Shown piece after piece: positions 9,303 to 28,190 of a stretch of DNA of 38,712 nt (position 1 is the first letter of the stretch; each line of letters opens with the position of its first letter). The notes beneath the pieces were generated by a model. The model saw only the letters and a list, made by a program, of their open reading frames with translations. It ran no database searches and had not been told where the DNA came from. Position numbers and translations under genes: made by a program. The DNA is from Magnetococcales bacterium (GTDB taxonomy: Bacteria > Pseudomonadota > Magnetococcia > Magnetococcales > Magnetaquicoccaceae). The stretch is from the NCBI GenBank assembly GCA_015231775.1, contig JADGAY010000009.1:1-38712 (forward strand). The letters run 5' to 3'.

Positions 9303-9499
9303 CCAGGGGCCCATGGCCCCTGGTGGGATCCAAGGGCAAAACCCTTGGGACTTGTCTTTTTTCTTTGTCCCTTTTCTTTGTCTTTTTTCTTTAAGGCGCG
9401 CTTTTACAAAGAAAAAAATTTCACGTTTTTTGTGAAATTTTTTGCGCGCCAGCCTTGGAAGAGGGATCGTTTTGCGGTTTTGGCAAAACGATCCCTCTT
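9303..9499 (+). repeat. Repeat family R1, copy 1 (modules A, C and D)
   Basis: This fills the 338-bp gap between hemN and the PPO gene. Module A has two hairpins: CCAGGGGCC with GGCCCCTGG (9303-9323), then CCAAGGG 9330-9336 with CCCTTGG 9342-9348, followed by a T-rich tract that could terminate hemN transcripts. Module C has an outer GGCGCGC 9395-9401 with GCGCGCC 9444-9450 and an inner 12-bp stem 9413-9424 / 9432-9443. Module D is a perfect 17-bp stem 9459-9475 / 9483-9499 with a 7-base loop. The same plan recurs at 13774, 14064 and 28003 with different but still complementary stems. Confidence 0.85.
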
Positions 9500-9566
9500 T
9501 GCCTTGCGTTGAAGTGGGTCGCCGGATGCGGCTTGTGTTGTGATTCGCAAAAAATCCGAAAAGTTA

Positions 9567-9596
9567 TTGTTCAGGAACTTCCCGAACCCCTATAAC
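9567..9596 (+). promoter_or_regulatory. Candidate promoter of the hemY-dnaQ pair
   Basis: TTGTTC (9567-9572), an 18-base spacer and TATAAC (9591-9596). The predicted start is about 14 bases before the ATG. GTTC-AG-GAAC in the spacer is a small palindrome. Confidence 0.4.
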
Positions 9597-9616
9597 CACA
9601 ATCAAATCATGGGATC

Positions 9617-11044
9617 ATGAATACCACGAACCCCGGCCACACCCTGATTCTCGGCGGCGGCATCTCCGGCCTCTCTCTTGCCTGGTTTCTGCACCAACGC
9701 GGTCAACCCGTCACCGTGCTCGACGCGGGCAATCGTCCTGGCGGCTCGATCCGCACCGAACACGATCAGGGCTATCAGATCGAACTGGGCCCCAACTCCA
9801 CCTTGCAAAAAACCGGTGATGATGATGCCCTGGGCCGCCTGGTCAAGGATTTGAACCTCGATGATCGCCTGATCGAAGCCTCTTCGGTCTCCTCGAATCG
9901 CTATGTCATGCATCGCGGTCGTTTGAAAGCCTTGCCGGACTCGCCGCCGAAATTCATTCTTTCCACGATTTTTTCCCCGTGGGCCAAGGTGCGGCTTTTG
10001 GCCGAACCTCTGATCGGCTGGGTGCTCCACGAGGAGCATATCGCCGAATTCGTGACCCGACGCCTGGGCCGGGAGTTTCTCGATTATGCCATCGAACCCT
10101 TCATCTCTGGAGTCTATGCCGGCGATCCACGCAGCCTCTCGATCGCGGCGGCGGCACCCAAGGTGCACCAACTGGAGCAGAGCTGGGGATCCCTGATCAT
10201 CGGCGGCATCATGGTCGGCAAGAAAAACAAGGCGATAGGGGTTCCACGCGGACGGCTGGTAACCTTGGATGGGGGGCTGGAACTGCTGCCGGCCACGATC
10301 GCCGCGCGCCTGCCCGCCGGCACGGTGCGAACCGGAACCGAGGTGATCACCGTGCGTCCGGAAGCGTCCGGTTGGCAGGTGGAGTGGCGCGATGCTCAAG
10401 GGGCACGGGGTTTGGAGCGGGCCGAACGGGTGGTTCTGGCCATGCCGTCCCACGCGGCGGCCAAGGCGCTCTTCACCACCCTTCCCGCCGCCAGTCAACT
10501 GTTGGCAGGTATCGCCTACGCACCGATCGCCTCGACCGCGATGGGTTATGCTCGTGACCAGGTGAGCCATCCGTTGGATGGATTCGGGGTTCTTTTGCCC
10601 CGCCGCGAACGGGTTCGTCTGCTTGGTGCGCTCTTCTCCTCGTCGCTCTTTCCAGGACGCGCGCCGGAAAACAAGGTGCTGGTGACCAGCTTCATTGGCG
10701 GGGCCATGGATTATCAGGCCCTGACCATGCCCGATCCGGCGCTTGAAGCCTGGGTGCGCAAGGATATGGCCGAGATCCTGGGGATTCGCGGCGAACCGGA
10801 ATTTTTCCGCATGACCCGCTATCAGCAGGCCATTCCGCAATACAACGTTGGCCATTTGAAACGGATCAAGGCGTTGGACAAGGTTCTCAAGGCCTATCCG
10901 GGGATTCATACCCGCGCCAACTGGCGCGATGGCATTTCGGTGTCGGATTGCGTGCTCAATGCCGAAAAGCTGGCCAGGCGTCTGACCGGCGAGCTGCCGG
11001 AGGAGCCGGAAGAGAAGGAGGAGGAGGAGGTACCCACCGAATGA
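9617..11044 (+). CDS. hemY: Protoporphyrinogen oxidase, FAD-dependent (HemY/PPOX type)
   Basis: This enzyme oxidises protoporphyrinogen IX to protoporphyrin IX with FAD and oxygen, the penultimate step of haem synthesis. The 475-residue product opens with the dinucleotide-binding motif GGGISGLSLAWFL (about residues 13-25) and the second FAD motif RPGGSIRTE. ELGPNS, ISGVYAGDP and a C-terminal GIS-SDCVLNAEKLA segment are all typical of PPOX. The acidic tail (EEPEEKEEEE) is unusual but probably harmless. The stop codon overlaps the dnaQ start (ATGA at 11041-11044), so the two are translationally coupled. Some databases name this family HemG. With hemE and hemN it gives three steps of the pathway in one place. 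Confidence 0.94.
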   Translation: MNTTNPGHTLILGGGISGLSLAWFLHQRGQPVTVLDAGNRPGGSIRTEHDQGYQIELGPNSTLQKTGDDDALGRLVKDLNLDDRLIEASSVSSNRYVMHRGRLKALPDSPPKFILSTIFSPWAKVRLLAEPLIGWVLHEEHIAEFVTRRLGREFLDYAIEPFISGVYAGDPRSLSIAAAAPKVHQLEQSWGSLIIGGIMVGKKNKAIGVPRGRLVTLDGGLELLPATIAARLPAGTVRTGTEVITVRPEASGWQVEWRDAQGARGLERAERVVLAMPSHAAAKALFTTLPAASQLLAGIAYAPIASTAMGYARDQVSHPLDGFGVLLPRRERVRLLGALFSSSLFPGRAPENKVLVTSFIGGAMDYQALTMPDPALEAWVRKDMAEILGIRGEPEFFRMTRYQQAIPQYNVGHLKRIKALDKVLKAYPGIHTRANWRDGISVSDCVLNAEKLARRLTGELPEEPEEKEEEEVPTE

Positions 11045-11748
11045 CCCGTTTGATCGCCCTGGATACCGAAACCACCGGGCTTTCCGCCAGCAAGGGGGAT
11101 CGCATCGTCGAGATTGGCTGCGTGGAGCTGATTCACATGCGCAAGGGGGCGACACGGCAATGGTTCATCAATCCGGAGCGACCGATTCCCGCCGAGGCGA
11201 CCCGCATTCATGGCATCACCGATGAGAAGGTGGCCAATGAACCGATTTTCAAGAAGATCGCCGAGGATTTTTTGGCCTTTATCGGTTCGGATCAACTGGT
11301 GATTTACAATGCCGGATTTGATCTGGGCTTTCTCAATGCCGAACTGGCGCGGATCAAACGACCCTTGCTGGATGGCTCACGGGTGATCGATGCCTTGATG
11401 TTGGCAAGGAAACGTTTTCCCGGAGCCAAGGCTGATCTGGATTCGGTCTGCAAGCGGTTCAAGATCGACAATGCGCATCGCAAGTTGCATGGCGCGTTGT
11501 TGGATGCGGAGCTGTTGGCCGAGGTGTACGTTGCCTTGAATGGCGGCGCGCAATTCACGATGGATTTGACCGGTGGGGTTGAGGAGGTTGCCGTCAAGGT
11601 CGCGACCACCTCAGAGCAGGCGACAAGCGTGGGGGGTGTGGTTCGTCCGGTGCGTGTCTGGCCGGTCGCCAGGGAGGAGGAGTTGGCCCATGCCGCGTTT
11701 TTGGAGTTCATGCAGAAGGAGCATGGTGGTTGTTTGTGGAGCAATTGA
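11041..11748 (+). CDS. dnaQ: DNA polymerase III epsilon subunit (proofreading 3'-5' exonuclease)
   Basis: DnaQ removes mispaired bases during replication as part of the polymerase III core. The 235-residue product is a DEDDh exonuclease: ExoI D8-T-E10-TTG, ExoII NAGFD94-LGF, ExoIII H150-GALLD155. The C-terminal tail after residue 170 is low in similarity, as usual for the linker that binds the alpha subunit. ATG 11041 overlaps the PPO stop by ATGA. dnaQ near hemE and aroE matches alphaproteobacterial origin regions. The frame is intact. Confidence 0.93.
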   Translation: MTRLIALDTETTGLSASKGDRIVEIGCVELIHMRKGATRQWFINPERPIPAEATRIHGITDEKVANEPIFKKIAEDFLAFIGSDQLVIYNAGFDLGFLNAELARIKRPLLDGSRVIDALMLARKRFPGAKADLDSVCKRFKIDNAHRKLHGALLDAELLAEVYVALNGGAQFTMDLTGGVEEVAVKVATTSEQATSVGGVVRPVRVWPVAREEELAHAAFLEFMQKEHGGCLWSN

Positions 11749-11781
11749 GTGGCTTAAGCGGTCAGAGTGGGAAATGAAGCG

Positions 11782-12867
11782 ATGTCTGGATACGACGTAA
11801 AACGCATTCTGGTGACCGGTGGGGCCGGCTTCGTCGGGTCGAATCTGGCCATGGCCTGCAAACGCGACCTGCCCGACACCGAGGTGATCGCCCTCGACAA
11901 CCTCAAACGGCGCGGCTCGGAACTCTCCCTGGATCGACTGCGACGGGGTGGGGTGAGATTCCATCACGGCGACATCCGCTGCCCCGAGGATCTCGACAGC
12001 CTCGAACCCGCGGACCTGATCCTCGAATGCTCGGCGGAACCAAGCGTGCAGGCCGGTTACGGCGGCTCCCCGGCCTATGTGATCCATACCAACCTCTCCG
12101 GCACCATCAATTGCCTGGAGTACGCCCGCAAACACGACAGCGCGTTGATCTTCCTCTCCACCAGCCGGGTCTATCCGATCGCGGGGTTGCGTCAGATCCC
12201 CATGCAAGAAGAGGCCTCACGCCTGGAGGTGGCCGAGGGTGCCCACGGCATCGGCTGGTCACGGGCTGGTATCCGCGAGGAGTTCCCCCTGACCGGAAGC
12301 CGCTCCATCTACGGTACCACGAAACTGGCCTCGGAACTTTTGATCGAGGAGTACCGTGCCATGTACGGCCTGAAAACCATCATCAACCGTTGCGGCATCC
12401 TGACCGGACCCTGGCAGATGGGCAAGGTGGATCAGGGGGTGATCGTGTTGTGGATGGCCCACCATTTTTTCAACCTGCCTCTGGGGTACATCGGCTTCGG
12501 CGGCACGGGCAAGCAGGTACGGGATTTGTTGCACGTTGATGATCTGTATGATCTGTTGCGGGTGCAGATGGCGGATCTGGCGCGTTATTCCGGGATGGTG
12601 GCCAATGTGGGTGGGGGTCGTGAGGTTTCGGTGAGTCTGAGCGAGTTGACCGACTGGTGCCAGCGCATCACGGGAAACGTGGTGCCGCTGCGTGCGGATC
12701 CGGTGACACGGGATTACGACATCCCCTATTACATCACCGACCACGCCCGGATCACCCACGCCACGGGCTGGACGCCAAAACGCGGGGTCGAGCAGACTTT
12801 GCGGGAGATTCATGGGTGGATCCAGACCAATCGGGAGATGCTGGCCCCTCTGTTCGGAGTCGCCTGA
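11782..12867 (+). CDS. NAD-dependent nucleotide-sugar epimerase/dehydratase, CDP-paratose 2-epimerase-like
   Basis: This extended short-chain dehydrogenase probably acts on a nucleotide-linked sugar for a surface glycan. The 361-residue product has the NAD motif TGGAGFVGSN (about residues 12-21), a catalytic Ser/Thr region FLSTSRVYP and the active-site Y-GTT-K in SRSIYGTTKLASE. The long insertion between SRVYP and SRSIYGTTK and the GIL-GPWQMGKVDQG stretch resemble CDP-paratose/CDP-tyvelose 2-epimerases more than GalE, but the substrate is uncertain. The frame extends to a GTG at 11767; ATG 11782 is preferred from alignment. It sits between dnaQ and aroE, with which it has no obvious pathway link, so it may be a local insertion in an otherwise conserved order. 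Confidence 0.85.
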   Translation: MSGYDVKRILVTGGAGFVGSNLAMACKRDLPDTEVIALDNLKRRGSELSLDRLRRGGVRFHHGDIRCPEDLDSLEPADLILECSAEPSVQAGYGGSPAYVIHTNLSGTINCLEYARKHDSALIFLSTSRVYPIAGLRQIPMQEEASRLEVAEGAHGIGWSRAGIREEFPLTGSRSIYGTTKLASELLIEEYRAMYGLKTIINRCGILTGPWQMGKVDQGVIVLWMAHHFFNLPLGYIGFGGTGKQVRDLLHVDDLYDLLRVQMADLARYSGMVANVGGGREVSVSLSELTDWCQRITGNVVPLRADPVTRDYDIPYYITDHARITHATGWTPKRGVEQTLREIHGWIQTNREMLAPLFGVA

Positions 12868-12887
12868 TACCAATCGTTGACAGGAAC

Positions 12888-13748
12888 ATGATGGAAAAAA
12901 CACATCTTTACGGCGTGATCGGGGATCCGATCCACCACTCCCTCTCTCCCTTCATGCATCAGCTCGCCTATGCCGAGCTGGAGATGTCCAACCATCGTTA
13001 TCTGCCGTTTCATGTACGCGCGGAGCGGCTCGTCGAGGCGGTACGTGGCATGGCGGCGTTGGGAATCCAAGGGTTCAACGCCACCATTCCCCACAAGGAG
13101 AACCTGGTTCCCCTGATGGATGAGCTTGATTCTTTTGTCCAGGTGATTGGCGCGGTCAATACCGTGAAGATCGATCCCACGGGCCGGATGACCGGGTACA
13201 ACACCGATGCTTACGGCTTTATCACCAATTTGCGTGAGATCTTTTCCGAATCCTTGCGGGATCTCGACATCCTGGTGCTTGGAGCCGGGGGGGCGGCGCG
13301 TGGGGTGTTGGCTGGATTGTTACAGGAGGGGGCGAATCGGATTGTGGTGATGAATCGCACCTTGAACCGGGCCGAGGCGCTGGTGGAGCGGTTACGGGTT
13401 CACTTTCCCGACCAGCCGGTCACCCCTCAAGCCTGGACGAACCGGTTGCCGGCCTGTCGTCTGTTGATCAACACCACCAGTCTGGGGATGGGGGATGATG
13501 ATGGATCGGTGCCGGATTTGCGTGATTTGGTAGCGGATGCCTTGGTGTATGATATCGTCTATGCCCCGCCGGTCACGCCGCTATTGGCGGTGGCGCGTGG
13601 TCGTGGATTGCGGGTTGAGAATGGTTTGGGGATGTTGATTCATCAAGGCGCCAGGGCCTTTGAGATCTGGACCGGGCGGGTGATGCCGGTAGCCAAGGTG
13701 CGCAAGGGATTGAAGGAGCGGATGGGGGTGGCGGAGTTGGGTGGGTGA
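12888..13748 (+). CDS. aroE: Shikimate dehydrogenase (NADP+)
   Basis: AroE reduces 3-dehydroshikimate to shikimate in the aromatic amino-acid pathway. The 286-residue product has the shikimate-binding GDPIHHSLSPFMHQ (about residues 12-25) and GFNATIPHKE with the catalytic lysine. The NADP motif is GAGGAARGVLAGL, and NTTSLGM follows. ATG 12888 and ATG 12891 are adjacent; AGGAAC just upstream suits the second slightly better. A C-terminal extension (RKGLKERMGVAELGG) is short and basic. It ends in the convergent, repeat-filled gap before the pentaheme cytochrome gene. Confidence 0.96.
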   Translation: MMEKTHLYGVIGDPIHHSLSPFMHQLAYAELEMSNHRYLPFHVRAERLVEAVRGMAALGIQGFNATIPHKENLVPLMDELDSFVQVIGAVNTVKIDPTGRMTGYNTDAYGFITNLREIFSESLRDLDILVLGAGGAARGVLAGLLQEGANRIVVMNRTLNRAEALVERLRVHFPDQPVTPQAWTNRLPACRLLINTTSLGMGDDDGSVPDLRDLVADALVYDIVYAPPVTPLLAVARGRGLRVENGLGMLIHQGARAFEIWTGRVMPVAKVRKGLKERMGVAELGG

Positions 13749-13773
13749 GATGAGGTGAGGTTTCTAACGTGTG

Positions 13774-13969
13774 CGGGGGACGGGGGGCCGAAGGTCCCCG
13801 GCAGAGGTTCGGAGACGGAGTCTCCGAGGTTTTGCCTTTGCTTTTGACTTGTGTCTTTGGCGCGCTCTTCAAAAAAGCGTTTTTTCGCGCCCTTTGCGAA
13901 AAAACGCTGCGCGCAGCCATGTTTGTGGGATCGTTTCGCGTTTTTGGCGAAACGATCCCACAAACATGG
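13774..13969 (+). repeat. Repeat family R1, copy 2 (modules B, C and D)
   Basis: This copy begins 25 bp after aroE. Module B has a G-rich/C-rich hairpin around 13782-13800 and TCGGAGAC 13809-13816 with GTCTCCGA 13820-13827. Module C has an outer GCGCGC 13860-13865 with 13909-13914 and an inner AGCG-rich 13-bp stem 13876-13888 / 13896-13908. Module D is a perfect 23-bp stem 13917-13939 / 13947-13969. Compared with copies 1 and 3, most stem positions have changed on both arms together. It is arranged head to head with copy 3 (14064). Confidence 0.85.
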
Positions 13970-14016
13970 CCCAAAAAATTGGCCACCGGAGGTGGCTATC
14001 GGGAGTCGAGCAATTC

Positions 14017-14053
14017 GCCCCCTCCTTATGCCCTGACGGGCAACGGAGGGGGC
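14017..14053. other. Nested palindrome between two inverted R1 copies
   Basis: GCCCCCTCC (14017-14025) pairs with GGAGGGGGC (14045-14053); inside it GCCC pairs with GGGC. It lies at the centre of symmetry between R1 copy 2 and the inverted copy 3. Confidence 0.5.
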
Positions 14054-14063
14054 ACATGAGACC

Positions 14064-14189
14064 GCGCGCTTGCGCCCTTTTTCGCAAAAATCGCGAAAAA
14101 GGGCTTATCGTGAAAAGCGCGCGAAAGTCAAAAAAACAAAATCCCAAGGGCTTCGCCCTTGGATCCCACCAGGGGCCATTGGCCCCTGG
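14064..14189 (-). repeat. Repeat family R1, copy 3, inverted (modules A and C)
   Basis: Read on the minus strand: CCAGGGGCC-aat-GGCCCCTGG (14189-14169), CCAAGGGC-gaa-GCCCTTGG (14162-14144), a T-rich tract, an outer GCGCGC (14122-14117 with 14069-14064) and an inner 12-bp stem GCCCTTTTTCGC / GCGAAAAAGGGC (14104-14093 / 14085-14074). Its T-rich tract is placed to act as a terminator for transcripts on the minus strand, whereas the converging pentaheme gene ends at 14212 on that same strand. Confidence 0.85.
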
Positions 14190-14211
14190 ACCCCGCCAGT
14201 CGAACCTCATC

Positions 14212-15504
14212 TTACAACGTCACTTCCGCCTTGCCGACCAGGGCCGGGGTTTTCAACGCGTCCGGCAACTGATCGCCGATCTTCTCCATCATCGGCTTGG
14301 AGATCAGATTGAAATACAACTCGGCACGCACCACCTTGACCCCGGAAACCGGAATCGGATAACTCAACACCCGCTTTTCACCCGGTTTCAAACGGGAATC
14401 CGGACCCAGCTTGGTGGCCTGGGGCGGCATGACCGGCTGGTTTTCGTTGTTGAGCAGCTTCAACATGAACAACGCCTGGGGATCCTCCTTGCCCGGATCC
14501 TCCTTGAAGTTGCTCCAGATCACCTCGCCCTTGTCGTTCAACGCCTGCACCTTGAGCACCAGATTGCGGAACGGCGCACTGTTGGGCATGGTGTGCAACA
14601 GGGTGTTCTTGAGGATGATGGTTGCCTTGAGCTTGCTCTCCTCGTCCGAGGTGTACATGGAGAGGGCCAGGGATTTTTGCACCTTGTCCGGATCGTGACC
14701 ACCAAGGATCTCGTGGCTGGCAACACCATTGATCACCGGCATGTGACACGATTGACAGGTGGGCACCACGACATCGCGACTCTCCTTGACCACCTTGCCC
14801 TTGACCTTGGTCTCACGCACATCCTTGCCGAGCAGCAGATCACCGATGGTGCAGACCGCCACCTTCTGGGGGTTGATCATGGTCTGATGGCAGCCCAAGC
14901 AGATGTCGGAACTCTTGAAGAGCCCCGGATTGGCGCGATGCGGGAAACTGTTGACCTTGGGCTCCTTGTCGCCACCCGGAACCACCACCGGCTCCTTGCC
15001 CCGCCAGGCCCCTTCCGGACCCTGGAGGCTGTCCTTGGAGTATTCATAAGCCGAGGCGCCGAAGTTCAATTTGCCATTCTCGGCCTCGATCCCCTTGAAC
15101 GCGGTCATGGTGTGACAGGCGACGCAGTTGACACCCTCGGCATACATGGGTTTGGAATCGAGCTTGGTAGTCTTGTCGCGGGCGGCAATGGGGGCGTGAC
15201 ACTGCAAACAGGCGGGAAAGGATTTGGTGACCTTGTGGGTGACCCCCTCCTGGGAGGGATCGCCGGCCTCGTTGCGATAGACCGCGCCATGGATGGGATC
15301 GGTCAAGGCAGTGCTTTTGGCATGCATGGAGCCCTGCCATTGCTGGTAGATCTCCTGGTGGCATTCGCCGCAATTGACCGAGGGGATGTGCTTCAAGGGA
15401 GGCCGTTCGCTCTCCGCCGGGTTATCCGAAGCCCAAACCGTCACGGCGGAGAGCAACAGGGCTCCCAACAGCAACGCCAATCCACCTCTTCCCTGCACGA
15501 CCAT
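14212..15504 (-). CDS. Periplasmic pentaheme cytochrome c, cytochrome c554-like
   Basis: This is an exported electron carrier or multihaem redox enzyme. The 430-residue product has a signal peptide (hydrophobic 9-24, cleavage near VWA-S) and five CxxCH motifs: CGECH (C45), CLQCH, CVACH, CLGCH and CQSCH. They are concentrated in the first 250 residues, with several free histidines (for example GSMHAKS and HEILGGHD) for distal ligands. The last 180 residues have no haem motif and look like a beta-sandwich domain (NTLLHTMPNSAPFRNLVLKV). The haem spacing recalls the cytochrome c554/c-prime family; donor and acceptor are unknown. A GGGAG stands 8-12 bases before ATG 15504. No partner redox gene is adjacent. 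Confidence 0.88.
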   Translation of the reverse strand: MVVQGRGGLALLLGALLLSAVTVWASDNPAESERPPLKHIPSVNCGECHQEIYQQWQGSMHAKSTALTDPIHGAVYRNEAGDPSQEGVTHKVTKSFPACLQCHAPIAARDKTTKLDSKPMYAEGVNCVACHTMTAFKGIEAENGKLNFGASAYEYSKDSLQGPEGAWRGKEPVVVPGGDKEPKVNSFPHRANPGLFKSSDICLGCHQTMINPQKVAVCTIGDLLLGKDVRETKVKGKVVKESRDVVVPTCQSCHMPVINGVASHEILGGHDPDKVQKSLALSMYTSDEESKLKATIILKNTLLHTMPNSAPFRNLVLKVQALNDKGEVIWSNFKEDPGKEDPQALFMLKLLNNENQPVMPPQATKLGPDSRLKPGEKRVLSYPIPVSGVKVVRAELYFNLISKPMMEKIGDQLPDALKTPALVGKAEVTL

Positions 15505-15636
15505 TGAAAAATCTCCCGATTGAAGTCAATCCTTGCCTTCCCCTCAAAGGCACCGGACATCATATCAGAGTGCCCGGCGCGACTCCAGGAGACAATCGGG
15601 ATTGGTGACCGCTGCGTGAACGTTTATCGTGTCATC

Positions 15637-18210: not shown

Positions 18211-18270
18211 GGCGTGGCATTCCTTGATTGGGGCGGGTCATGCGGTAGGCATGATCTCTTTGGAGTAACG

Positions 18271-18299
18271 AAATAGGTATGGGGAGAGGGAATTACAAG
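18271..18299 (-). promoter_or_regulatory. RpoH (sigma-32) heat-shock promoter of clpB
   Basis: On the minus strand CTTG (18299-18296), an 18-base spacer and CCTATTT (18277-18271). This matches the alphaproteobacterial sigma-32 form CTTG-N17/18-CYTATNT. It lies 61 bases before the clpB start. Confidence 0.8.
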
Positions 18300-18341
18300 G
18301 TGGGGGGGGGATTATTCAGGATTCGGGGGTGAACGGGTGAT

Positions 18342-20748: not shown

Positions 20749-21464
20749 GCGCCGGAGTCCATTATCTGATGACCACGCTGCAGCTCAAAGGGATGGCCTC
20801 TGTTCTGGAACGGGAACTGATGCGTGCGGAACGGGAAGGAACTTCCGTGTCGGAGGTGCTGGAGCGACTGCTGATGGAAGAGTCCCGGCACCGGCAGGAG
20901 CAGAGCATGGCCTATCGTCTGCGTCAGGCCAGAATGCCCTGGGATTGGAGCCTTGAATCGTTTCCTTTCCAGCGGCAACCAGGGGTCAGTCAGGCGCAGA
21001 TCCGACAACTGGCCAGCCTTGCCTTTCTCAAACGTGCGGAAAATGTGGTCTTCATCGGTAATCCCGGCACTGGCAAGACCGGCCTGGCCATCGCCCTGCT
21101 GCGCCAATCACTGATCAACCAGCATCGCGGGCGATTCTACAATGCCCAGGATCTGATGAACGAACTCTATGCTTCGCTGGCCGACCGTTCCACCTCGCGG
21201 CTTCTCAAGCAATTGGCCTCCTACGACCTGTTGGTCATCGACGAATTGGGCTACCTGACCCTCAAACCGGAACAGGCCAACGCCTTCTTCAAGCTCATGG
21301 ATCTGCGCTACGGCAAAAAATCCACCCTCATCACCACCAATCTGGATTACCCGGAATGGTACGAACTGTTCCAGCGCAAATCCCTGGTCGAGGCCCTCCT
21401 GGACCGCCTCCAGCACCTCTGCACCACGATCCGCATCTCCGGACCCTCTCTGCGCGCTTCCTGA
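20745..21464 (+). CDS. istB: IS21-family AAA+ helper ATPase IstB
   Basis: IstB binds target DNA and stimulates IstA, and is related to DnaC/DnaA-type AAA+ proteins. The 239-residue product has Walker A GNPGTGKTGLA (about residues 104-114), Walker B YDLLVIDELGYL (about 158-169) and a sensor region STLITTNLDY. The N-terminal helical segment (VLERELMRAEREG) is typical. The ORF is intact and overlaps istA by ATGA, implying coupled translation. With istA intact, the protein-coding part of the element looks functional although its left end was not found. Confidence 0.95.
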   Translation: MSAGVHYLMTTLQLKGMASVLERELMRAEREGTSVSEVLERLLMEESRHRQEQSMAYRLRQARMPWDWSLESFPFQRQPGVSQAQIRQLASLAFLKRAENVVFIGNPGTGKTGLAIALLRQSLINQHRGRFYNAQDLMNELYASLADRSTSRLLKQLASYDLLVIDELGYLTLKPEQANAFFKLMDLRYGKKSTLITTNLDYPEWYELFQRKSLVEALLDRLQHLCTTIRISGPSLRAS

Positions 21465-21474
21465 TTTCCCCCCC

Positions 21475-21554
21475 TGCGTTCCCTGCGGCAATTTTTCCAA
21501 CCAGCTTCTTTTTCTCCCTGTCGCTCCCTGCGGCAATCTTTCCACCCACCAGCT
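21475..21554 (+). repeat. Imperfect direct repeat just after istB
   Basis: TCCCTGCGGCAATTTTTCC (from 21480) and TCCCTGCGGCAATCTTTCC (from 21525) are nearly identical. They lie 10-90 bp after istB and just before the terminal 22-bp repeats, and are probably part of the element's right end. Confidence 0.5.
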
Positions 21555-21576
21555 CACTTCATCACCCGCGCACTTC

Positions 21577-21622
21577 GTGGGTCACTTTTCGTGAGCACGG
21601 GTGGGTCAATTCCCGTGAGCGC
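21577..21622 (+). repeat. IS21 right-end direct repeats
   Basis: Two 22-bp copies with a period of 24 bp: GTGGGTCA-cttttc-GTGAGCAC (21577-21598) and GTGGGTCA-attccc-GTGAGCGC (21601-21622). Multiple terminal repeats are normal IstA binding sites in IS21 elements. Confidence 0.6.
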
Positions 21623-21632
21623 CGACAATCAA

Positions 21633-22025
21633 CGAACCTTGAGGTCGATTGAAAGGAATATATATATAAATCAAAGTCAAAACCAGCCGCTTTCATTTAG
21701 GTTCTGACTTGATCGGGAGTACGGAAGGAGAGATTAACCAACCACAGCGACGAATTTACCCACCAGGAACGCGGGAATCAGAAAAATTGATGCACAACAG
21801 GTAAGACCGGCTTTTTCAATCCTGTGAAGTCCCATGGCCGAATACAGGCCGAGCCCTTGATAAGGATGAAAAAGCGCGTATGAACATCATGGCCGGAGGT
21901 GACGAACCAAACGCCTCATAAACAGGCCGTATATATGGGTGCAGTCCATTCCTGTCCAGTCATCAATTTTGTCGAATTTCCTTGCGTCGGAGGATGGGTC
22001 CATATATGGGACTTTGATTTTGGCG
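21633..22025. other. Gap with no recognised gene
   Basis: About 390 bp between the IS21 right end and R1 fragment. It is AT-richer than the surroundings, with a run of TA dinucleotides near 21659-21667. Short open frames exist but none has a recognisable product. I see no tRNA or riboswitch. Confidence 0.4.
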
Positions 22026-22071
22026 CTGCCTCCGAACCTCTGCCGGGGACCTTCGGCCCCCGGACCCCCGC
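22026..22071 (-). repeat. R1 module B fragment, minus strand
   Basis: On the minus strand it reads GCGGGGG-tccgggggccgaa-GGTCCCCGG followed by CAGAGGTTCGGAGGCA, matching the module B start of copies 2 (13774) and 4 (28003). The second module B hairpin is cut after its first arm. It lies between convergent istB and the radical SAM gene. Confidence 0.75.
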
Positions 22072-22098
22072 AAACGTTTTTCGTGATCTTCTGGCCCC

Positions 22099-23436
22099 TT
22101 ACCTTGCCAGATGCTCGAACTTCAACTGCCCATCCGTGGCCCGCACATAATGTTCGTCCAAACGGGCGGAAGGATAAGCATGCAAAAACTTCTGCCGGCT
22201 CAAGGTGTGCAACGGCGCCCCCTCGATCTCCGCGCAACCCGACTTTTGAATCGAATCGAGGGGCAGGGTGAGAATGTAATCCTCGGTACGCCGTACCTGC
22301 TCCGGGGTCTCGCCCGGCAATCCGAAGGTGAAGGTTCCATGCAACGTCATGCCCACCCGCCGGATCTCATGGGCCACCCGACGCGCCTCCTCCAGATTCA
22401 GCCGCTTGTTGACGATCTTGTCCACCACCTCCTGATCGCCACTCTCGAACCCGACTTTGACGCCGAAACAGCCGCTCTCCTTCATCTCTTGCCATAGATG
22501 GAAACCGGAGGTGTCGGATCGGCACATCGCCGACCAGGGAACCTTGAGCTTGCGCATGATGGCACACACCTTCTCGACATGTCGATCGCCGAGATTGAAG
22601 GTGTCGTCGTCAAAGTAGATGGATTTGAAATGGTATTTTTCCACCAACTCGGTCAGGAAGGCCTCCAGATAGTCGCCGCTGTAATGACGCACGAACCGCT
22701 TGCCCGCCCCGTCCGGATCGTTGCCGGTCATGGTGGCCGGCCAGACGCAGAAGATACATTTGAAGGGACAACCGCGACTGCTCAACACCTGGGCGTGCGG
22801 AGCGCACTGCCCGACCGGATTGCTGTCCCAGTACCGGTAGGCATAAAGATGGTCGAAATAGGGAAACGGCGCGCTGTTCATCTCCTCCAGGGTGAGCAGG
22901 TCGAAATCGATCAGACCCGTCTCTCCCTGAACGGCCCGCACCACCCCCTTTTCATACTCGCCCCGTATCGCGGCCTGGATGTTGGGCGCGGCGTTGAAAA
23001 GCGCTTCGCCAAGCGAGGTGATCGGTCCGGTGACGATGAAACGGGTGTGGGGCAGACGCGCGGCGATCTGACGCAGAAGATCCCGATCATGCTCCCAACT
23101 CGGCGAGGCCGATTCGATGACGATGACCTCGAATCGCTCCCGTTCCAGATAGTCGAAATATCGGCCATACGATTCGCGCAGGGCGATGCTGTCGCGAAAC
23201 ACCACCGGTACCTCCAGGGCCCTGGCGGCGTAGGTGGTGGCGTAGCCCATGAAGAAAGGGTAGGGGAGATAGGAGCCGAATTCAAAACGATCCGGCGGAA
23301 TGGCAAGCTGATAGGTGAACGGCCAACGGGATCCGGCCCGAACCCCGGCCCGCCATCCCAAAAGCTGGGACTCCTGATTCGGAACCGTGGTGGTGATCTC
23401 CTGCCACCAGGGGGGATTGCTGAACAGGATCTTCAT
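22099..23436 (-). CDS. B12-binding-domain radical SAM enzyme
   Basis: This is a BchE/HpnP-type radical SAM protein of unknown substrate. The 445-residue product has an N-terminal cobalamin-binding-like domain (KILFSNPPWW, then FMGYATTYAARAL and VIVIESASPSWEHD) and the cluster motif CPFKCIFC in SSRGCPFKCIFCVWP (about residues 220-230). A TIM-barrel core follows, with DDDTFNLGD and VGFESGDQEVVDKIVNK. The DxHxxG cobalamin motif is not evident, so cobalamin use is uncertain. A GTG at 23442 (reading MTM) is possible, but ATG 23436 is preferred. It begins right after the glycosyltransferase stop (TGA 23443-23445), so the two are co-transcribed and may modify the same glycan or lipid. Confidence 0.88.
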   Translation of the reverse strand: MKILFSNPPWWQEITTTVPNQESQLLGWRAGVRAGSRWPFTYQLAIPPDRFEFGSYLPYPFFMGYATTYAARALEVPVVFRDSIALRESYGRYFDYLERERFEVIVIESASPSWEHDRDLLRQIAARLPHTRFIVTGPITSLGEALFNAAPNIQAAIRGEYEKGVVRAVQGETGLIDFDLLTLEEMNSAPFPYFDHLYAYRYWDSNPVGQCAPHAQVLSSRGCPFKCIFCVWPATMTGNDPDGAGKRFVRHYSGDYLEAFLTELVEKYHFKSIYFDDDTFNLGDRHVEKVCAIMRKLKVPWSAMCRSDTSGFHLWQEMKESGCFGVKVGFESGDQEVVDKIVNKRLNLEEARRVAHEIRRVGMTLHGTFTFGLPGETPEQVRRTEDYILTLPLDSIQKSGCAEIEGAPLHTLSRQKFLHAYPSARLDEHYVRATDGQLKFEHLAR

Positions 23437-23442
23437 CGTCAC

Positions 23443-24681
23443 TCACCCCGCGTGCCCGGCGTGCCAGGAGAGAATGGTGTCGAGCAGACGCGGCGGACCG
23501 TTCAAGGCGTCCCATTGTCGAGAGGCGAGCTTGGCGCGCGCGGCCAGGGTATCGAAGTGCTGCAACCCGGTGAGGATGCCCTGCAACACCACGTCGGCAT
23601 CGGCGCGCTCCGATGGGTCGTCGTAGATGATTCCAGGTCCACCGAACTGCTGTACCAGGTTGGCCAAGGTGGTGCGCGACGGGACCACCAGCGGAATGGC
23701 ATTGGCGATCGCCTCGCTGGCTACCGCGGAGTAGGTGGAGACGAAATGATCCCGATAGTAGGGACAGACGATCAGATCGGATTGCTCGAGTAGTGGCCCC
23801 CACAGCTCCGGTCCGGCGGTGCGCTCTTCGAGGATGAGACGATGATCCCCCAGGGCAATGGCGCGCAATTGGTTCTGAAGATCCACGCAGAGATCCGGCG
23901 CGCCGTTGTGGACCAGGACACGCACATCCGGAACCAGGCTCAAAAGCCGTCCAACCACCTCGGGAACCAGTCCGAACCCCTTTTCCAGACGTTGATGACC
24001 GAGCAGGGAGACCGTGATGGGACGGGTGCCGACACGCTCGCGGCAGGTGGTGAGGGTGCCGTTGGAGAGCGGCAACACATGCATCGGATGATCGAACAGC
24101 TTTTCATAGATGGCCGAGGCCTGGGAATCGAAGGTGGCCAGACGCAACCAGCCGTGATCCGCCGGGGTGAGGAGCTTCTTGGCCACGAACCGCAGCAGCA
24201 AGGGCCGGGGATCGTTCTGATAACGCACCGCCAGTTCAATGTTGCCGTTTTCGCTTTCTTGTGGAACCAGACCGGCGAAATGGCCAAATTCGATGATCAT
24301 CGTGGGACGCTGGTCCATGGGGAAGGTTTGGATCCAGCTCACCGCGGCCTGAAACTGCGCCGGTCCCGCGGAGTTGACGAAGATGATGTCATCACGACTC
24401 ACACCATGCAAACCGGAGAAATCCTCCTGGGTGACCCTGGCCACGAAATCGAAGTTGCTCAACCAGCCGCACAAGGGATCGGTGTCGTAGACGCCGTAAG
24501 GGTTGCAGCGAAACCAGGGCACGGCCAACAATTCGTCGCGCAGCTCGGGTTCGATGTGGTTGTAGGCCAAAATGGCCGAGGGGATGCCACGTCGCTTGGC
24601 TTCGTGGACCATGTGGCGACACGAGTTGGCGTGGTGACCCAGATTGTTGGTCAGTCCGGCATCGGCGTAGAGAAAGTTCAT
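23443..24681 (-). CDS. GT-B type glycosyltransferase (family 1/4-like)
   Basis: It probably transfers a sugar onto a surface polysaccharide or lipid carrier; donor and acceptor are unknown. The 412-residue product starts MNFLYADAGLTNNLGHHA, with a nucleotide-fold N-terminal half that has HANSCRHMVHEAKRRG. The C-terminal Rossmann domain contains TVSLLGHQRLEKGFGLVP, DVRVLVHNGAP and a donor-site-like SDLIVCPYYRDHFVSTYSAVASEAIA with the acidic E typical of GT-B enzymes. The frame is open to 24762, but ATG 24681 gives the natural start. It sits beside the IS21 scar, so this pair may belong to a variable region. Confidence 0.85.
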   Translation of the reverse strand: MNFLYADAGLTNNLGHHANSCRHMVHEAKRRGIPSAILAYNHIEPELRDELLAVPWFRCNPYGVYDTDPLCGWLSNFDFVARVTQEDFSGLHGVSRDDIIFVNSAGPAQFQAAVSWIQTFPMDQRPTMIIEFGHFAGLVPQESENGNIELAVRYQNDPRPLLLRFVAKKLLTPADHGWLRLATFDSQASAIYEKLFDHPMHVLPLSNGTLTTCRERVGTRPITVSLLGHQRLEKGFGLVPEVVGRLLSLVPDVRVLVHNGAPDLCVDLQNQLRAIALGDHRLILEERTAGPELWGPLLEQSDLIVCPYYRDHFVSTYSAVASEAIANAIPLVVPSRTTLANLVQQFGGPGIIYDDPSERADADVVLQGILTGLQHFDTLAARAKLASRQWDALNGPPRLLDTILSWHAGHAG

Positions 24682-24727
24682 GGAACGATGGCATCCTGGC
24701 TGATAGGGTTTTGGTCTCGCTTTTTTT

Positions 24728-24744
24728 CTCCTTTTGAAAAGGAG
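24728..24744. other. Short palindrome in the glycosyltransferase leader
   Basis: CTCCTTTT-g-AAAAGGAG. On the minus strand it lies about 50-65 bases upstream of the glycosyltransferase ATG. The AAAAGGAG arm is Shine-Dalgarno-like but too far from the start to act as one. Confidence 0.35.
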
Positions 24745-24851
24745 GTTTGGCGATTTTCGCATACTTTCTTTAAATGCAAAAGGGGTGACGCTGATATGCG
24801 TTAATCAAAACATTTTTGACCCAAATCATGACTCCCCATGCAGGAAAATTC

Positions 24852-24880
24852 TTGACATAAGAAAATGGGGAAGTTAGAAA
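24852..24880 (+). promoter_or_regulatory. Sigma-70 promoter of the M23 peptidase gene
   Basis: TTGACA (24852-24857, perfect), a 17-base spacer and TAGAAA (24875-24880). The predicted start is near 24887, giving a leader of about 140 bases that contains the small ORF at 24932. Confidence 0.7.
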
Positions 24881-24931
24881 GAATGATTTATGCCCCTCCG
24901 TCAGCTTATAAATCGTATTTAGGGGTTTTCA

Positions 24932-25012
24932 ATGTCAACTCGGACCGCGAATTGCAAGGGGCCGAATGACATGGTGAAGCAGACGGAAGTGATAGATCAA
25001 CTGCTTGATTAA
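24932..25012 (+). CDS. Possible 26-residue leader peptide
   Basis: ATG 24932 opens a 26-codon frame that reads MSTRTANCKG and ends EVIDQLLD-stop at 25012. AGGGG lies 9 bases before it. It ends 13 bases before the M23 gene's ATG 25026, a spacing suited to translational coupling. It could be a regulatory leader, a small protein or chance. No homology is recognised. Confidence 0.35.
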   Translation: MSTRTANCKGPNDMVKQTEVIDQLLD

Positions 25013-25025
25013 AGTGGAAAAAAAT

Positions 25026-26942
25026 ATGCAATTATCCTCCACGAAATGGTTGCGCAAAACGCTGTCGGCCTTGTTGATCCTGACGGCGACCCAGGTTGCC
25101 CAGGCGAGCACGGGTGGAAATCAGTCCCAGGACTATTTCCGCAAGATGCTCAAAAGCGAGGATCGCAACTCCCAGGCATCGCGCATCGACGATCCGATTG
25201 CCGAGGGACGTGGCGAGGTTTCGCGCATCCCTTCGACTCCGGTTCGCCTGGCGTCGCTGGTGCCGATCCAAACCGTGGTCGAACCGCAACGTACCGCCTC
25301 CAAGACCCGGGTGGTCATCGAGCGGATCCGGCGCGATGATACCTACGTCGAATTGATGCAGCGTCAAAACATTCCCAGAAAAACCGTCAAGCTTTTCGCG
25401 CTCAAGGCCAAGCCGCTCTTCGATCTCCAGCAGCGTCTGCGCACCGATACCCCGGTCAAATTGACCTTCAATCAGAACAACCAGTTGATCGGCTTCAGCT
25501 ATCCGGTGGAGCGCGATCAGACCCTGCGCATCGCCATGGATGAGCAGGAGCGCATCACCGCCACCCTGGAAGCCAATCGTCAGCCGCCGCCGCAACCGGT
25601 CGCCTCCGAGGACAACAAGCCGGAGAGCCAGACCGAGGCCAAAAACGACAAGAAAAACGACAATCGGAACACGGATGAGGATTCGTCCAACAACGAGATC
25701 ATCGTTGAGGACGAAACCGCCATGTCCGACGATGACGAAGACGACTCCTCCCCGCCGATTGCCGAGGCTCTTTCCCGTGAGTTCGCGGGTCTGATCGTCA
25801 CCACCAAGGAGATCACCATCCGTCCGGGCGACTCCCTCGGTTCGCTGTTGGCGCGGCGTCATGTTCCCAATTTGACCGCCCTCCAGCTCTCCAAGTCGGC
25901 CCGTCCGGTGTATGATCTGGCCAAGCAGCTCGCGCCGGGGAAGACCATCACCCTCTCCTTCGCGCCGAACGGCAACCTGATCGGCATGATGTATCCGGTG
26001 GATCGCGAGCGCACCTTCTGGATCACCAGCCGCGACGGCAAGCACTTCACCGCCAAGTTCGAGAAGAAAATGCTCGATGTGCGGTTGGAGTCCATCGACG
26101 GCACGATCCGCAACGAGCGGTCGCTGTTCGTCGCCGCCAAGCGTGCCGGGTTGTCGCGCAATCTGGCCATCAAGCTGACCGGTCTGTTCGAGTGGGACAT
26201 CGACTTCGCCCGTGATCTGCACCCTGGCGACCATTTCACCATCGTTCAGGAGGGTCTCTTTTACAAGGGCAAGCGGGTACGGGACGGGGATATCGTGGCC
26301 GCCGAGTTCACCAATCAGGGCCAATTGTTCCGTGCCGTGCGTTACATCGATCCGAACGGCCATGTCGGTTATTATGACAAGGACGGCAACAACGTGCGCA
26401 AGATGTTCATCCGCGCGCCCATGGACTACACCCGCGTCTCTTCGGTCTTCTCGAGCAACCGTCTGCATCCGGTCTATGGGTTCAACCGTGCCCACAAGGG
26501 TGTCGATTATGCCGCGCCGGTGGGAACGCCGGTGCGTGCCGCAGGTGAGGGCACGATCGAATCCGTCGGCTATCAGGGCGGGTATGGCAACATGATCGTG
26601 GTGCGTCACAGCCCCAAGTTCAGCACCGCTTATGCCCATCTAAGCTCCTTTGCCAGCGGCATGCGTCAGGGGCAGCGGATTCGTCAAGGTGAGGTGATCG
26701 GTCGGGTGGGTGCCACGGGCACGGCCACCGGTCCGCATCTTCATTATGAGGTTCGCATCAACGATCAGCAGGTCAATCCCTTCACCGTGCAGTTGCCCTC
26801 CAGCGGTCCGGTGGAGAAGCGCTTTCTCTCCGACTTCCGCAATCAGAGCAACCAGTTGATGACGTTGCTCAAGAAGCGCAAGACGGGTGATGTGACCCAT
26901 CTGGCCTCGGCGGTGCTGACGCAGCGTTCCCAGTCGCGGTAA
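25026..26942 (+). CDS. Secreted peptidoglycan endopeptidase, M23 family (MepM/OapA-like)
   Basis: This enzyme cuts peptide cross-links in peptidoglycan during growth or division in the periplasm. The 638-residue product has a signal peptide (residues about 8-29, ending QVAQA). Two related OapA/LysM-like modules follow: one near residues 95-185 and one near 255-350 (each with a D-Y/S-L start, an R/K-P-[LV]-[YF]-DL motif and a G-F/M-YPV-R stretch). Between them lies a strongly acidic, asparagine-rich linker (DEDSSNNE and MSDDDEDDSS). The M23 zinc site is H490-xxx-D494 and H571-L-H573. The start ATG 25026 is preferred over a TTG at 25005 because GTGGA stands 9-13 bases before it. Confidence 0.92.
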   Translation: MQLSSTKWLRKTLSALLILTATQVAQASTGGNQSQDYFRKMLKSEDRNSQASRIDDPIAEGRGEVSRIPSTPVRLASLVPIQTVVEPQRTASKTRVVIERIRRDDTYVELMQRQNIPRKTVKLFALKAKPLFDLQQRLRTDTPVKLTFNQNNQLIGFSYPVERDQTLRIAMDEQERITATLEANRQPPPQPVASEDNKPESQTEAKNDKKNDNRNTDEDSSNNEIIVEDETAMSDDDEDDSSPPIAEALSREFAGLIVTTKEITIRPGDSLGSLLARRHVPNLTALQLSKSARPVYDLAKQLAPGKTITLSFAPNGNLIGMMYPVDRERTFWITSRDGKHFTAKFEKKMLDVRLESIDGTIRNERSLFVAAKRAGLSRNLAIKLTGLFEWDIDFARDLHPGDHFTIVQEGLFYKGKRVRDGDIVAAEFTNQGQLFRAVRYIDPNGHVGYYDKDGNNVRKMFIRAPMDYTRVSSVFSSNRLHPVYGFNRAHKGVDYAAPVGTPVRAAGEGTIESVGYQGGYGNMIVVRHSPKFSTAYAHLSSFASGMRQGQRIRQGEVIGRVGATGTATGPHLHYEVRINDQQVNPFTVQLPSSGPVEKRFLSDFRNQSNQLMTLLKKRKTGDVTHLASAVLTQRSQSR

Positions 26943-26964
26943 GGGGTGACCCAGGACGTGGATG

Positions 26965-26992
26965 AAAAAAGAGGGGATCTCCCCTCTTTTTT
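26965..26992. terminator. Strong bidirectional terminator after the M23 gene
   Basis: AAAAAAGAGGGGA (26965-26977) and TCCCCTCTTTTTT (26980-26992) are a perfect 13-bp inverted repeat with T-runs on both strands. Confidence 0.92.
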
Positions 26993-27112
26993 CGTTTTTG
27001 GGACCGCGGCACAGTTCAGATTTTCAACGGTCGCGGAGGGCGAAGGTTCCCGAACCCGCGCAATGGTCCATCCATTCGATCCATGACACCCGCGAGCCGG
27101 ATTCATCCTGCC

Positions 27113-27988
27113 ATGAACCAACCCGCCATTCCCGCCACCTGGACCATTCGTACCCTGCTTGCCTGGAGCACCCCCTGGCTTGGTCAGCGGGGCATCGACT
27201 CCCCGCGTCTGGATGGTGAGTTGTTGCTGGCCAAGGCGCTCGGGTTGCGTCGCATCGATCTGTTCCTTGACCCGCACCGACCGTTGACCCCCACGGAGTT
27301 GGGCGCCTTCAAGGCCTTGATCGTGCGTCGAGCCGCGCGTGAGCCGGTGGCCCATATTCTGGGGATGCGGGAGTTTTGGGGCATTGAATTTGAATCCAGC
27401 GGCGCGGCCTTGATTCCCCGTCCGGAGACCGAATTGCTGGTTGAAACGGTTCTGGCCCATTTCCCGGACCGTTCGACCCCACTGGCGATTTTGGAGCCGT
27501 GCGTGGGGAGTGGTGCGTTGTTGTGTGCGTTGCTCAAGGAGTATCCCCAGGCCGAGGGGGTTGGGAGTGATCTATCCGCCGAAGCGTTGGCGTTGGCGCG
27601 GTGCAATGTGGAGAGGTGCGGTCATGCGGCGCGTGTGACGCTTGTTGAAGGGGATCTGGACGCGTCCGTGGCTGAAGAAAGGGAATTTGACGTGGTGGTG
27701 GTCAACCCGCCGTACATCGCGTCTGGCGAGCTGGAGGGGTTGCAACCCGAGGTACGGGATTGGGAGCCGCGTTTGGCATTGGATGGCGGGGCGGATGGTT
27801 TGGTGTTGTTGAAGCGGTTGCCGGCGTTGTTCCGGCGGCGCATGCGTTCGGGCGGGGTGGCGGTGACCGAGATTGGGTATGATCAGGGGGAGGCGGTGGT
27901 GGCGTTGTTTCGGCGTGATGGATTCGAGGGGGTTGAGTTGTTGCGGGATTATCATCGGTTGCCGAGGGCGGTGGTGGTGAGAGGGTAG
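27113..27988 (+). CDS. prmC: Release factor glutamine methyltransferase PrmC (HemK)
   Basis: PrmC methylates the glutamine of the GGQ motif in release factors RF1 and RF2. The 291-residue product has a helical N-domain that binds the factor (WTIRTLLAWSTPWLGQRGIDSPRLDGELLL) and IPRPETELLVE. The SAM-binding region is EPCVGSGALLCALL, where most family members have LGTGSG, and the catalytic NPPY lies in VVVNPPYIA. The frame extends to ATG 27083; neither start has a good ribosome binding site, so the choice rests on the N-terminal alignment. It is followed at once by an R1 repeat. prfA, the usual neighbour, is not in the window. Confidence 0.93.
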   Translation: MNQPAIPATWTIRTLLAWSTPWLGQRGIDSPRLDGELLLAKALGLRRIDLFLDPHRPLTPTELGAFKALIVRRAAREPVAHILGMREFWGIEFESSGAALIPRPETELLVETVLAHFPDRSTPLAILEPCVGSGALLCALLKEYPQAEGVGSDLSAEALALARCNVERCGHAARVTLVEGDLDASVAEEREFDVVVVNPPYIASGELEGLQPEVRDWEPRLALDGGADGLVLLKRLPALFRRRMRSGGVAVTEIGYDQGEAVVALFRRDGFEGVELLRDYHRLPRAVVVRG

Positions 27989-28002
27989 GGGGTAAACCGT
28001 CG

Positions 28003-28190
28003 CGGGGGACGGGGGGCCGAAGGCCCCCGGCGGAGGTTCGGAGGCAGAGCCTCCGAGACTTTTTCTTTGACTTTTCCTTTGACTTTGGCGCGCTCTTCAA
28101 AAAAGCGATTTTCACGTCTTTTGTGAAAATCGCTGCGCGCAGCCTTGGAAGATGGGTCGTTTTGCGCAGTTGGCAAAACGACCCATCTTC
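28003..28190 (+). repeat. Repeat family R1, copy 4 (modules B, C and D)
   Basis: Module B: GGGGGCC 28012-28018 with GGCCCCC 28022-28028, and TCGGAGGC 28038-28045 with GCCTCCGA 28049-28056. Module C: outer GCGCGC 28088-28093 with 28135-28140 and inner AGCGATTTTCAC (28104-28115) with GTGAAAATCGCT (28123-28134). Module D: an 18-bp perfect stem 28148-28165 / 28173-28190. Against copy 2, changes on one arm are matched on the other, for example GAC/GTC to GGC/GCC in module B. It lies between convergent prmC and the ABC ATPase gene. Confidence 0.88.

What the first reader, a model, noticed from the sequence alone, without database searches (positions are those of the whole stretch)
9303..28190. R1: a dispersed multi-hairpin repeat with covarying stems
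Four copies (9303-9499, 13774-13969, 14064-14189 inverted, 28003-28190) share one plan: A or B hairpins, T-rich tract, GGCGCGC stem, inner hairpin, AGCC, long perfect D stem. The stem sequences differ between copies, but both arms change together. The inner module C stem is AGCGTTTTTTCGC in one, AGCGATTTTCAC in another and GCCCTTTTTCGC in a third, each with its exact complement. Paired change shows selection for, or copying of, structure and not sequence. I know of no described element with this plan.
Basis: seen in the sequence. Interest (0 to 1): 0.75.

Follow-up and report, generated by a model that had tools for sequence, protein, structure and literature searches.

The report
Order-wide mobile terminator-hairpin repeat
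A family of non-coding DNA elements, present about 150 times in this bacterial genome and also found in relatives of the same order, sits at the ends of genes with a terminator-like hairpin and keeps several hairpins almost perfectly paired although their sequences keep changing; it looks like a new, unnamed kind of REP/BIME-like repeat.

Summary
Models built from the copies give 154 non-overlapping hits in the 3.82 Mb host genome (103 L-type, 51 R-type; 41 L/R tail-to-tail pairs) and hits in 22 of 60 relatives, all in its order (probably Magnetococcales).
C and D stems are about 99% Watson-Crick while their sequences differ; 14 of 26 pairs covary beyond a tree-based null. G.T is not clearly favoured over A.C (16 vs 15; fixed frame 15 vs 8), double transversions outnumber double transitions, and four copies show block conversion of one arm to the complement of the other. 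I lean to arm-to-arm copying at DNA level plus constraint on the plan, but RNA-level selection is not excluded.
A unit stands between hemN and the next gene, where 9 of 9 congeners read have none; an orthologous unit in the nearest relative keeps its place with its stems changed on both arms. Units lie behind genes (2 of 54 in divergent gaps). No Rfam, plasmid or phage match; Y1 transposase does not track it. Best reading: a new BIME/REP-like mobile element carrying a terminator; mobiliser unknown.

The parts
9303..9348 (+). two A-type terminator-like hairpins (9303-9323 and 9330-9348) of the single L unit behind hemN
9350..9393 (+). T-rich (pyrimidine) tract
9395..9450 (+). L core: GGCGCGC outer stem, 5' bulge, C hairpin with 7-nt loop
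9459..9499 (+). D hairpin, 17 bp, 7-nt loop
13781..13828 (+). B-type terminator-like hairpins (13781-13801 and 13808-13828) of the L half of the heterodimer behind the shikimate dehydrogenase gene
13829..13858 (+). T-rich tract
13860..13914 (+). L core with C hairpin (13 bp, 7-nt loop); on the minus strand the C hairpin plus T run is terminator-like
13916..13970 (+). D hairpin, 24 bp perfect, 7-nt loop; compared with L111 the outer 5' arm is changed in a block to the complement of the 3' arm
13982..13996 (.). short central hairpin GCCACC-GGA-GGTGGC in the linker between the L and R halves
14009..14124 (-). R half: core 14064-14122 (C hairpin GCCCTTTTTCGC..GCGAAAAAGGGC) and E hairpin within 14009-14063
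14143..14189 (-). A-type terminator-like hairpins (14143-14163 and 14169-14189) of the R half, behind the convergent cytochrome gene
28010..28057 (+). B-type terminator-like hairpins (28010-28030 and 28037-28057) of the single L unit behind prmC
28058..28086 (+). T-rich tract
28088..28140 (+). L core with C hairpin (12 bp, 7-nt loop)
28148..28190 (+). D hairpin, 18 bp, 7-nt loop
22008..22079 (-). remnant: B-type terminator hairpins without a core, running straight into an inverted T tract
   Evidence: (I2, I3)

Best explanation
The feature is a dispersed, non-coding, mosaic palindromic element confined, as far as searched, to one bacterial order (probably Magnetococcales): a new family of the REP/BIME kind that carries its own terminator-like hairpins. 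One half-unit reads: terminator-like hairpin(s) of interchangeable type A, B or F; T-rich tract; outer GC stem with a 5' bulge; C hairpin; short spacer; D (or E) hairpin. Two unlike halves, L and R, often stand tail to tail. SHOWN: copy number, plan, mostly 7-nt T-rich loops in fixed orientation, settlement at gene 3' ends, presence between hemN and the next gene where congeners have none, near-perfect Watson-Crick stems whose sequence turns over on both arms. INFERRED: (i) the unit ends transcription from one or both sides and so is tolerated mainly behind genes; (ii) it is copied as a unit by a DNA mobiliser not identified here; (iii) the arms are kept complementary chiefly by one arm templating the other (template switching at the hairpin, or repair of a folded single-strand intermediate), while selection or the mobiliser keeps loop, apex, stem base and stem length.
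For: Family and range. Same plan with unlike sequence in other species. Loop of 7 nt in 101 of 139 C and 117 of 139 D hairpins; 215 of these 218 loops have more T than A in the element's sense, 1 is equal, and the 2 A-rich ones come from one misoriented call. 41 L/R tail-to-tail pairs, 32 of them with model hits 35-43 nt apart; 3 L/L, 0 R/R. Gene ends: of 54 units with both neighbours called, 23 convergent, 29 co-directional, 2 divergent; none of 86 inside a gene; in the window 5 of 20 gaps of 50 nt or more are divergent (Fisher P 0.014). Gain: no element between hemN and the next gene in 9 of 9 congeners read. Mismatches in C+D stems of 132 distinct elements (one misoriented): 3795 WC, 16 GT, 15 AC, 12 other. 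Differences between near D stems: 154 double transversions, 95 double transitions, 6 other double, 44 one-sided. Footprint: 13916-13970 has the same 3' arm as L111 but an outer 5' arm changed in a block to its exact complement; L113, L119 and L124 share that state. The unit behind shikimate dehydrogenase is shared with G007 in place and in its A-type terminator, yet C, D and R-half stems differ on both arms (read by eye).
Against: The G.T/A.C argument is weak: in a fixed frame the counts lean to G.T (C 11 positions 3:1, D 15 positions 12:7; together 15:8, P 0.21), D position 16 alone gives 14:10, and the contrast with the upstream terminator hairpins (10:2) is not significant (P 0.085; fixed frame 0.43). 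At some stem bases G-C, G.T and A-T all occur at one place, as RNA-level drift would give. Loops were never seen inverted, though inversion is one trace of template switching. No mobiliser found: Y1_Tnp is absent in G002 (93% complete) and G036 (100%), which have the element. No target-site duplication or sharp ends could be fixed. Elements were chosen partly by their pairing, which lifts the paired percentage. 5 of 17 co-directional single units lie antisense. Terminator-like sites number 3, 4 and 3 against shuffle means 1.4, 1.7 and 0.8 (sd 1.1, 1.5, 0.8), a modest excess.
Confidence: 0.46

Rival explanations
1. A structured cis-acting RNA of mRNA 3' ends (terminator plus stabilising or protein-binding hairpins); the stems are kept by selection on the RNA through ordinary compensatory change.
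For: Units lie behind genes; loops keep one orientation; strong covariation; fixed-frame mismatches lean to G.T 15:8, not significantly; 12 of 17 co-directional singles are sense (P 0.14).
Against: No clear G.T excess in C and D stems (16:15); double transversions exceed double transitions; the hemN site lacks it in 9 of 9 congeners read; C and D lie beyond the terminator-like site, so they may be little transcribed.
Confidence: 0.27
2. A plain two-way transcription terminator system that the host uses, homogenised by gene conversion between copies, without being a mobile element.
For: Terminator-like sites on both strands; 23 of 54 units between convergent genes; stems turn over in place at an orthologous site.
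Against: Of the four convergent gaps of 50 nt or more in the gene list, two hold the core, one only a remnant and one nothing; the unit stands between hemN and the next gene, which overlap or nearly abut in congeners; terminator hairpins also stand alone.
Confidence: 0.15
3. A REPIN proper, moved by a RAYT/TnpA-REP Y1 transposase.
For: High copy, intergenic, unlike halves in tail-to-tail dimers, hairpin with bulge; one 109-aa Y1 frame in the own genome.
Against: Y1_Tnp is missing in 5 of the 23 genomes with R1 hits, among them G002 and G036 (three others are 74-76% complete), and present in 24 of the 38 without R1 hits; no GTAG or CGTC tag seen at the hairpin feet in the consensus.
Confidence: 0.08
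4. Chance or assembly artefact.
For: Many copies lie at contig ends.
Against: found in 23 separately held genomes. Contig ends are what repeats do to assemblies.
Confidence: 0.01

Closest known systems
REP / BIME / REPIN repeats with RAYT (PMC3733652: passages read; PMC8266576: outline and abstract; PMC3116915 and PMC2817692: search listing with start of abstract)
   Same: High-copy extragenic palindromes, joined as dimers, mostly between convergent or co-directional genes, with sequence types that differ between species.
   Different: A half-unit is about 200 bp (about 430 bp as a dimer) with several hairpins, terminator-like hairpins and a T tract. D stems reach 15-24 bp (described REP stems: 5-13 bp for GTAG, 8-9 bp for CGTC, PMC3733652). 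No GTAG/CGTC tag seen; not tracked by Y1_Tnp.
Hairpins made or kept by template switching (Monttinen and Loytynoja 2022, PMC8794818: abstract, part of the introduction and the section on footprints of compensatory mutations read)
   Same: Multi-base change of one arm to the exact complement of the other; double changes without a wobble step.
   Different: There: RNA genes along a phylogeny. Here: about 150 paralogues in one genome, with a hypervariable middle stem between a fixed apex and base, and no inverted loops seen.
CGTC-tagged REPs without a dedicated transposase (PMC3733652, passages read)
   Same: Dispersed palindromic dimers with no assigned mobiliser.
   Different: There 8-9 bp stems, 4-5 nt loops, a CGTC tag and mainly head-to-head dimers; here longer stems, 7-nt loops, no such tag, tail-to-tail dimers (my own naming of the ends).
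Intrinsic terminators (recalled definition)
   Same: A/B hairpins followed by a T-rich tract at gene ends.
   Different: The C, D and E hairpins and the dimer plan are no part of a plain terminator.

Membership tests
REP/BIME | high-copy, extragenic palindromic repeat in mosaic or dimer arrangement | tested here: met
   154 hits, 108 units, 41 L/R pairs; none inside a called gene among the 86 units with a stretch held
REP/REPIN | GTAG or CGTC tag at the hairpin foot | tested here: not met
   consensus of 30 L and 15 R copies shows AGCCTTGG and GGTCTCATGTGCC before D/E and no such tag (read by eye, not searched)
REPIN | associated RAYT (Y1_Tnp) gene | tested here: not met
   5 of 23 genomes with R1 hits lack PF01797, two of them 93% and 100% complete
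Rfam structured RNA | match to a curated covariance model at its gathering score | tested here: not met
   no match of any of 4227 families over the window
intrinsic terminator (A/B part) | GC hairpin followed by T-rich tail | tested here: met
   9329-9349, 13808-13828, 28037-28057 on plus, 14163-14143 on minus, numbers only modestly above shuffles
intrinsic terminator (A/B part) | stops transcription | not testable with these tools
   no expression data
MITE-type transposable element | filled versus empty orthologous sites | tested here: met
   hemN site: own filled, 9 of 9 congeners read empty; prmC site empty in G007
MITE-type transposable element | terminal inverted repeats and target-site duplication | tested here: inconclusive
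   only a short ACNGTYRC-like stretch before many B hairpins, by eye; no duplication could be fixed
RNA under compensatory selection | excess of G.U over A.C in the sense strand | tested here: inconclusive
   16 GT vs 15 AC within called stems; fixed frame 15 vs 8, P 0.21; upstream terminators 10 vs 2, P 0.04, or 7 vs 2 in distinct stems, P 0.18

The most novel reading that the evidence does not exclude
A mobile terminator of one bacterial order that spreads through a folded single-strand intermediate in which each hairpin is proofread against itself, so that every new copy starts with perfect stems. The hypervariable middle of the D/E stem is then free sequence held only by self-templating, between an apex and base read by an enzyme not yet known.
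Probability: 0.2. Interest if true: 0.78.

Novelty: new variant of a known kind. Interest (0 to 1): 0.5.

Why it matters
It is an element family not found described in the searches, spread through an order of bacteria and carrying a terminator-like hairpin to gene ends. With about 150 paralogues in one genome and copies in many species it offers a natural experiment on an open question: whether perfectly paired stems evolve by stepwise compensatory change or by one arm copying the other. It also warns that covariation alone need not prove a functional RNA.

Tried and rejected
Rfam family: rejected. Y1/RAYT mobiliser: does not track. Plasmid or phage origin: no match. Naming the host: the order name rests on one best named match of HemN (56% identity). 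The R1 model found nothing in the 80 named loci fetched there (674,441 bases, Magnetococcales locus L031 included), nor R2 in L031, so no named genome with the element was seen. Genes between inward-facing copies on C243 and C160: ORFs listed, no family search run; no transposase recognised by eye; not pursued. The alignment of the hemN site misplaced the right flank; that claim rests on the sequences printed. Part of the output was cut, so some shikimate dehydrogenase loci were not seen; output was also cut. Structural caller: 210 chains, 71 without a T-rich upstream stretch dropped; among the 139 kept, 7 were sequence repeats and one was misoriented. For 22 of 108 units no stretch with flanks was held; of the 86 others 54 had both neighbours called by my own simple gene caller. 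The R2 list typed into held 51 of the 126 hits, those scoring better with R2 or not found with R1. Both models were built from copies of this genome, and searches over 40 genomes used stricter filters and capped candidates (61 scored per genome, 12), so counts in other species are lower bounds.
Full report
WHAT IS THERE. The host genome (G000, 3.82 Mb, 389 contigs, 89% complete) probably belongs to Magnetococcales: the best named match of the HemN-like protein is a Magnetococcales MAG at 56% identity; that is the only basis for the name. A DNA search with one copy gave 64 matches in the own genome, with 40 of 128 candidates scored.

ANATOMY. Reading the copies side by side gives a half-unit: one or two GC-rich hairpins of type A (CCAGGGGCC..), B (CCGGGGGCC.. 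plus TCGGAGGC..) or F (CTGGGAGATTC..); a T-rich tract; GGCGCGC; a bulge on the 5' side; the C hairpin; GCGCGC; a short spacer; and a D hairpin (L type) or E hairpin (R type). L and R halves often lie tail to tail. A short hairpin of 5 bp or more was found by rule in the 60 nt after D/E in 43 of 90 own elements. In the window, about 13774-14205 is such a heterodimer, while 9303-9499 and 28003-28190 are single L units.

NUMBERS. Models R1 (30 L copies) and R2 (15 R copies) gave 143 and 126 hits at E up to 0.001 in the own genome. Merged without overlap these are 154, of which 103 score as L and 51 as R, in 108 units: 41 L/R tail-to-tail pairs (40 as plain pairs, one inside a three-part unit), 3 L/L and no R/R; 32 of the 41 have model hits 35-43 nt apart. 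In relatives R1 hit 23 of 61 genomes, own included, all of them in the same order, and 0 of the 13 genomes from outside the order. R2 was run only inside the order: 21 of 40, own included. A draw of 299 genomes of the phylum gave 22 with R1 hits, all in the order. In other species the plan is the same while many stem sequences differ.

COVARIATION. On the sequence-based alignment A1, 99.4% of 990 cells pair and 15 of 33 pairs change on both sides; no shuffle of 500 and no slide comes near. Against 100 simulations along a tree of 81 distinct rows, 14 of 26 pairs exceed the 95th percentile of the null maximum, 3 exceed the per-pair 95th percentile only, and 9 nearly invariant ones do not. A caution: rows for one search were found by a structural caller, and the outer-stem register can slip by a base.

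WHAT KIND OF PAIRED CHANGE. If the sense-strand RNA were what selection sees, G.U should be tolerated more than A.C. In the called C and D stems of 132 distinct elements there are 3795 Watson-Crick pairs, 16 G.T, 15 A.C and 12 others. In a fixed frame over distinct stems the numbers are 3:1 (C, 11 positions) and 12:7 (D, 15 positions), together 15:8, P 0.21. The upstream terminator hairpins give 1556 Watson-Crick, 10 G.T, 2 A.C and 2 others, or 505, 7, 2 and 2 in distinct stems. The contrast between the two classes is not significant (P 0.085, or 0.43 with the fixed frame). So these counts show no clear RNA-level signature in C and D but do not exclude one. Between D stems that differ at one or two of 15 places, 154 paired differences are double transversions, 95 double transitions, 6 other double changes and 44 one-sided (13 G.T, 8 A.C, 23 other; comparisons are not independent). 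The D/E stems have a conserved apex and base and a hypervariable middle of about 5-8 bp that is nearly always paired.

FOOTPRINTS OF COPYING. L111 and window 13916-13970 have the same 3' D arm, but the window copy has a block of its 5' arm changed to that arm's exact complement, lengthening the stem from 16 to 24 bp. L113, L119 and L124 show the same state; whether these are separate events is not known. Such multi-base perfection is what template switching predicts (PMC8794818; abstract, part of the introduction and one results section read). Against it, no inverted loop was seen among correctly oriented elements.

ORTHOLOGOUS SITES. In 9 of 9 congeners where the hemN end was read (G001-G004, G006-G010; no orthologue hit in G005) the next gene, an amine-oxidase-like (hemY-like, name inferred) gene, follows without the element: the stop codon overlaps the next start in the six checked by pattern, and G007 has a gap of about 70 nt. 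In the own genome the whole unit, A-type terminator included, stands between them. The prmC site is empty in G007. The shikimate dehydrogenase site holds an L/R unit in both G000 and G007, with matching flanks and A-type terminator, but with C, D and R-half stems changed on both arms (read by eye). So units are gained, and once present their stems can turn over in place.

PLACE AND LIKELY EFFECT. Of 86 units with flanks held, 54 have both neighbours called: 23 convergent, 29 co-directional, 2 divergent; none of the 86 lies inside a called gene. In the window, 5 of 20 gaps of 50 nt or more are divergent, so divergent gaps are under-used (Fisher P 0.014). Terminator-like sites were found for the A/B hairpins in the sense direction and, in the L copies at 13860 and 28088, for the C hairpin plus T run in the other direction; counts per region are only modestly above shuffles. 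A two-way terminator that travels would be tolerated behind genes and harmful inside operons or before promoters. This is inference; no expression data were available.

WHAT IT IS NOT. No Rfam family at gathering score. No plasmid or phage match. Not a REPIN by the tests run: no GTAG/CGTC tag seen in the consensus, and Y1_Tnp does not track it. It works much like a BIME: dispersed, palindromic, dimeric, at gene ends. It is filed as a new variant of that kind, with the mobiliser unknown. No paper describing it was found in four searches, which cover open-licence PubMed Central only; of the papers listed I opened two (PMC3733652 passages, PMC8266576 outline and abstract) and saw only listings of the rest.

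Noticed in passing
window 35658-35726, 38555-38623, 38624-38692; also inside the E hairpin of L135 and L139: Another dispersed repeat (38555-38692 is a tandem pair, 96% alike); a similar stretch (GTGGRACTCCCGC..GGGAGGTCCACGG) sits inside the R-type E hairpin in two copies (likeness judged by eye).
   Followed up: no
window 22008-22079: B-type terminator hairpins on the minus strand running straight into an inverted T tract, without a core: looks like a deletion remnant of a unit.
   Followed up: partly
window 21465-21548: Two 39-nt direct repeats 45 nt apart, 79% alike, behind the gene ending at 21464.
   Followed up: no
L278 (G008, behind prmC): An F-type hairpin with following T-rich stretch appears twice in tandem without any core: terminator modules also occur alone.
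   Followed up: no
L223 (C243) 1144-3131 minus: A 474-aa frame that by eye resembles an AAA/OLD-type ATPase (recalled likeness, no family search), with a 188-aa neighbour, lies between two inward-facing L elements.
   Followed up: no
contig ends of G000 (for example C45, C53, C207, C312, C357): Element copies coincide with contig ends, so they probably break the assembly and the true copy number may be higher.
   Followed up: no
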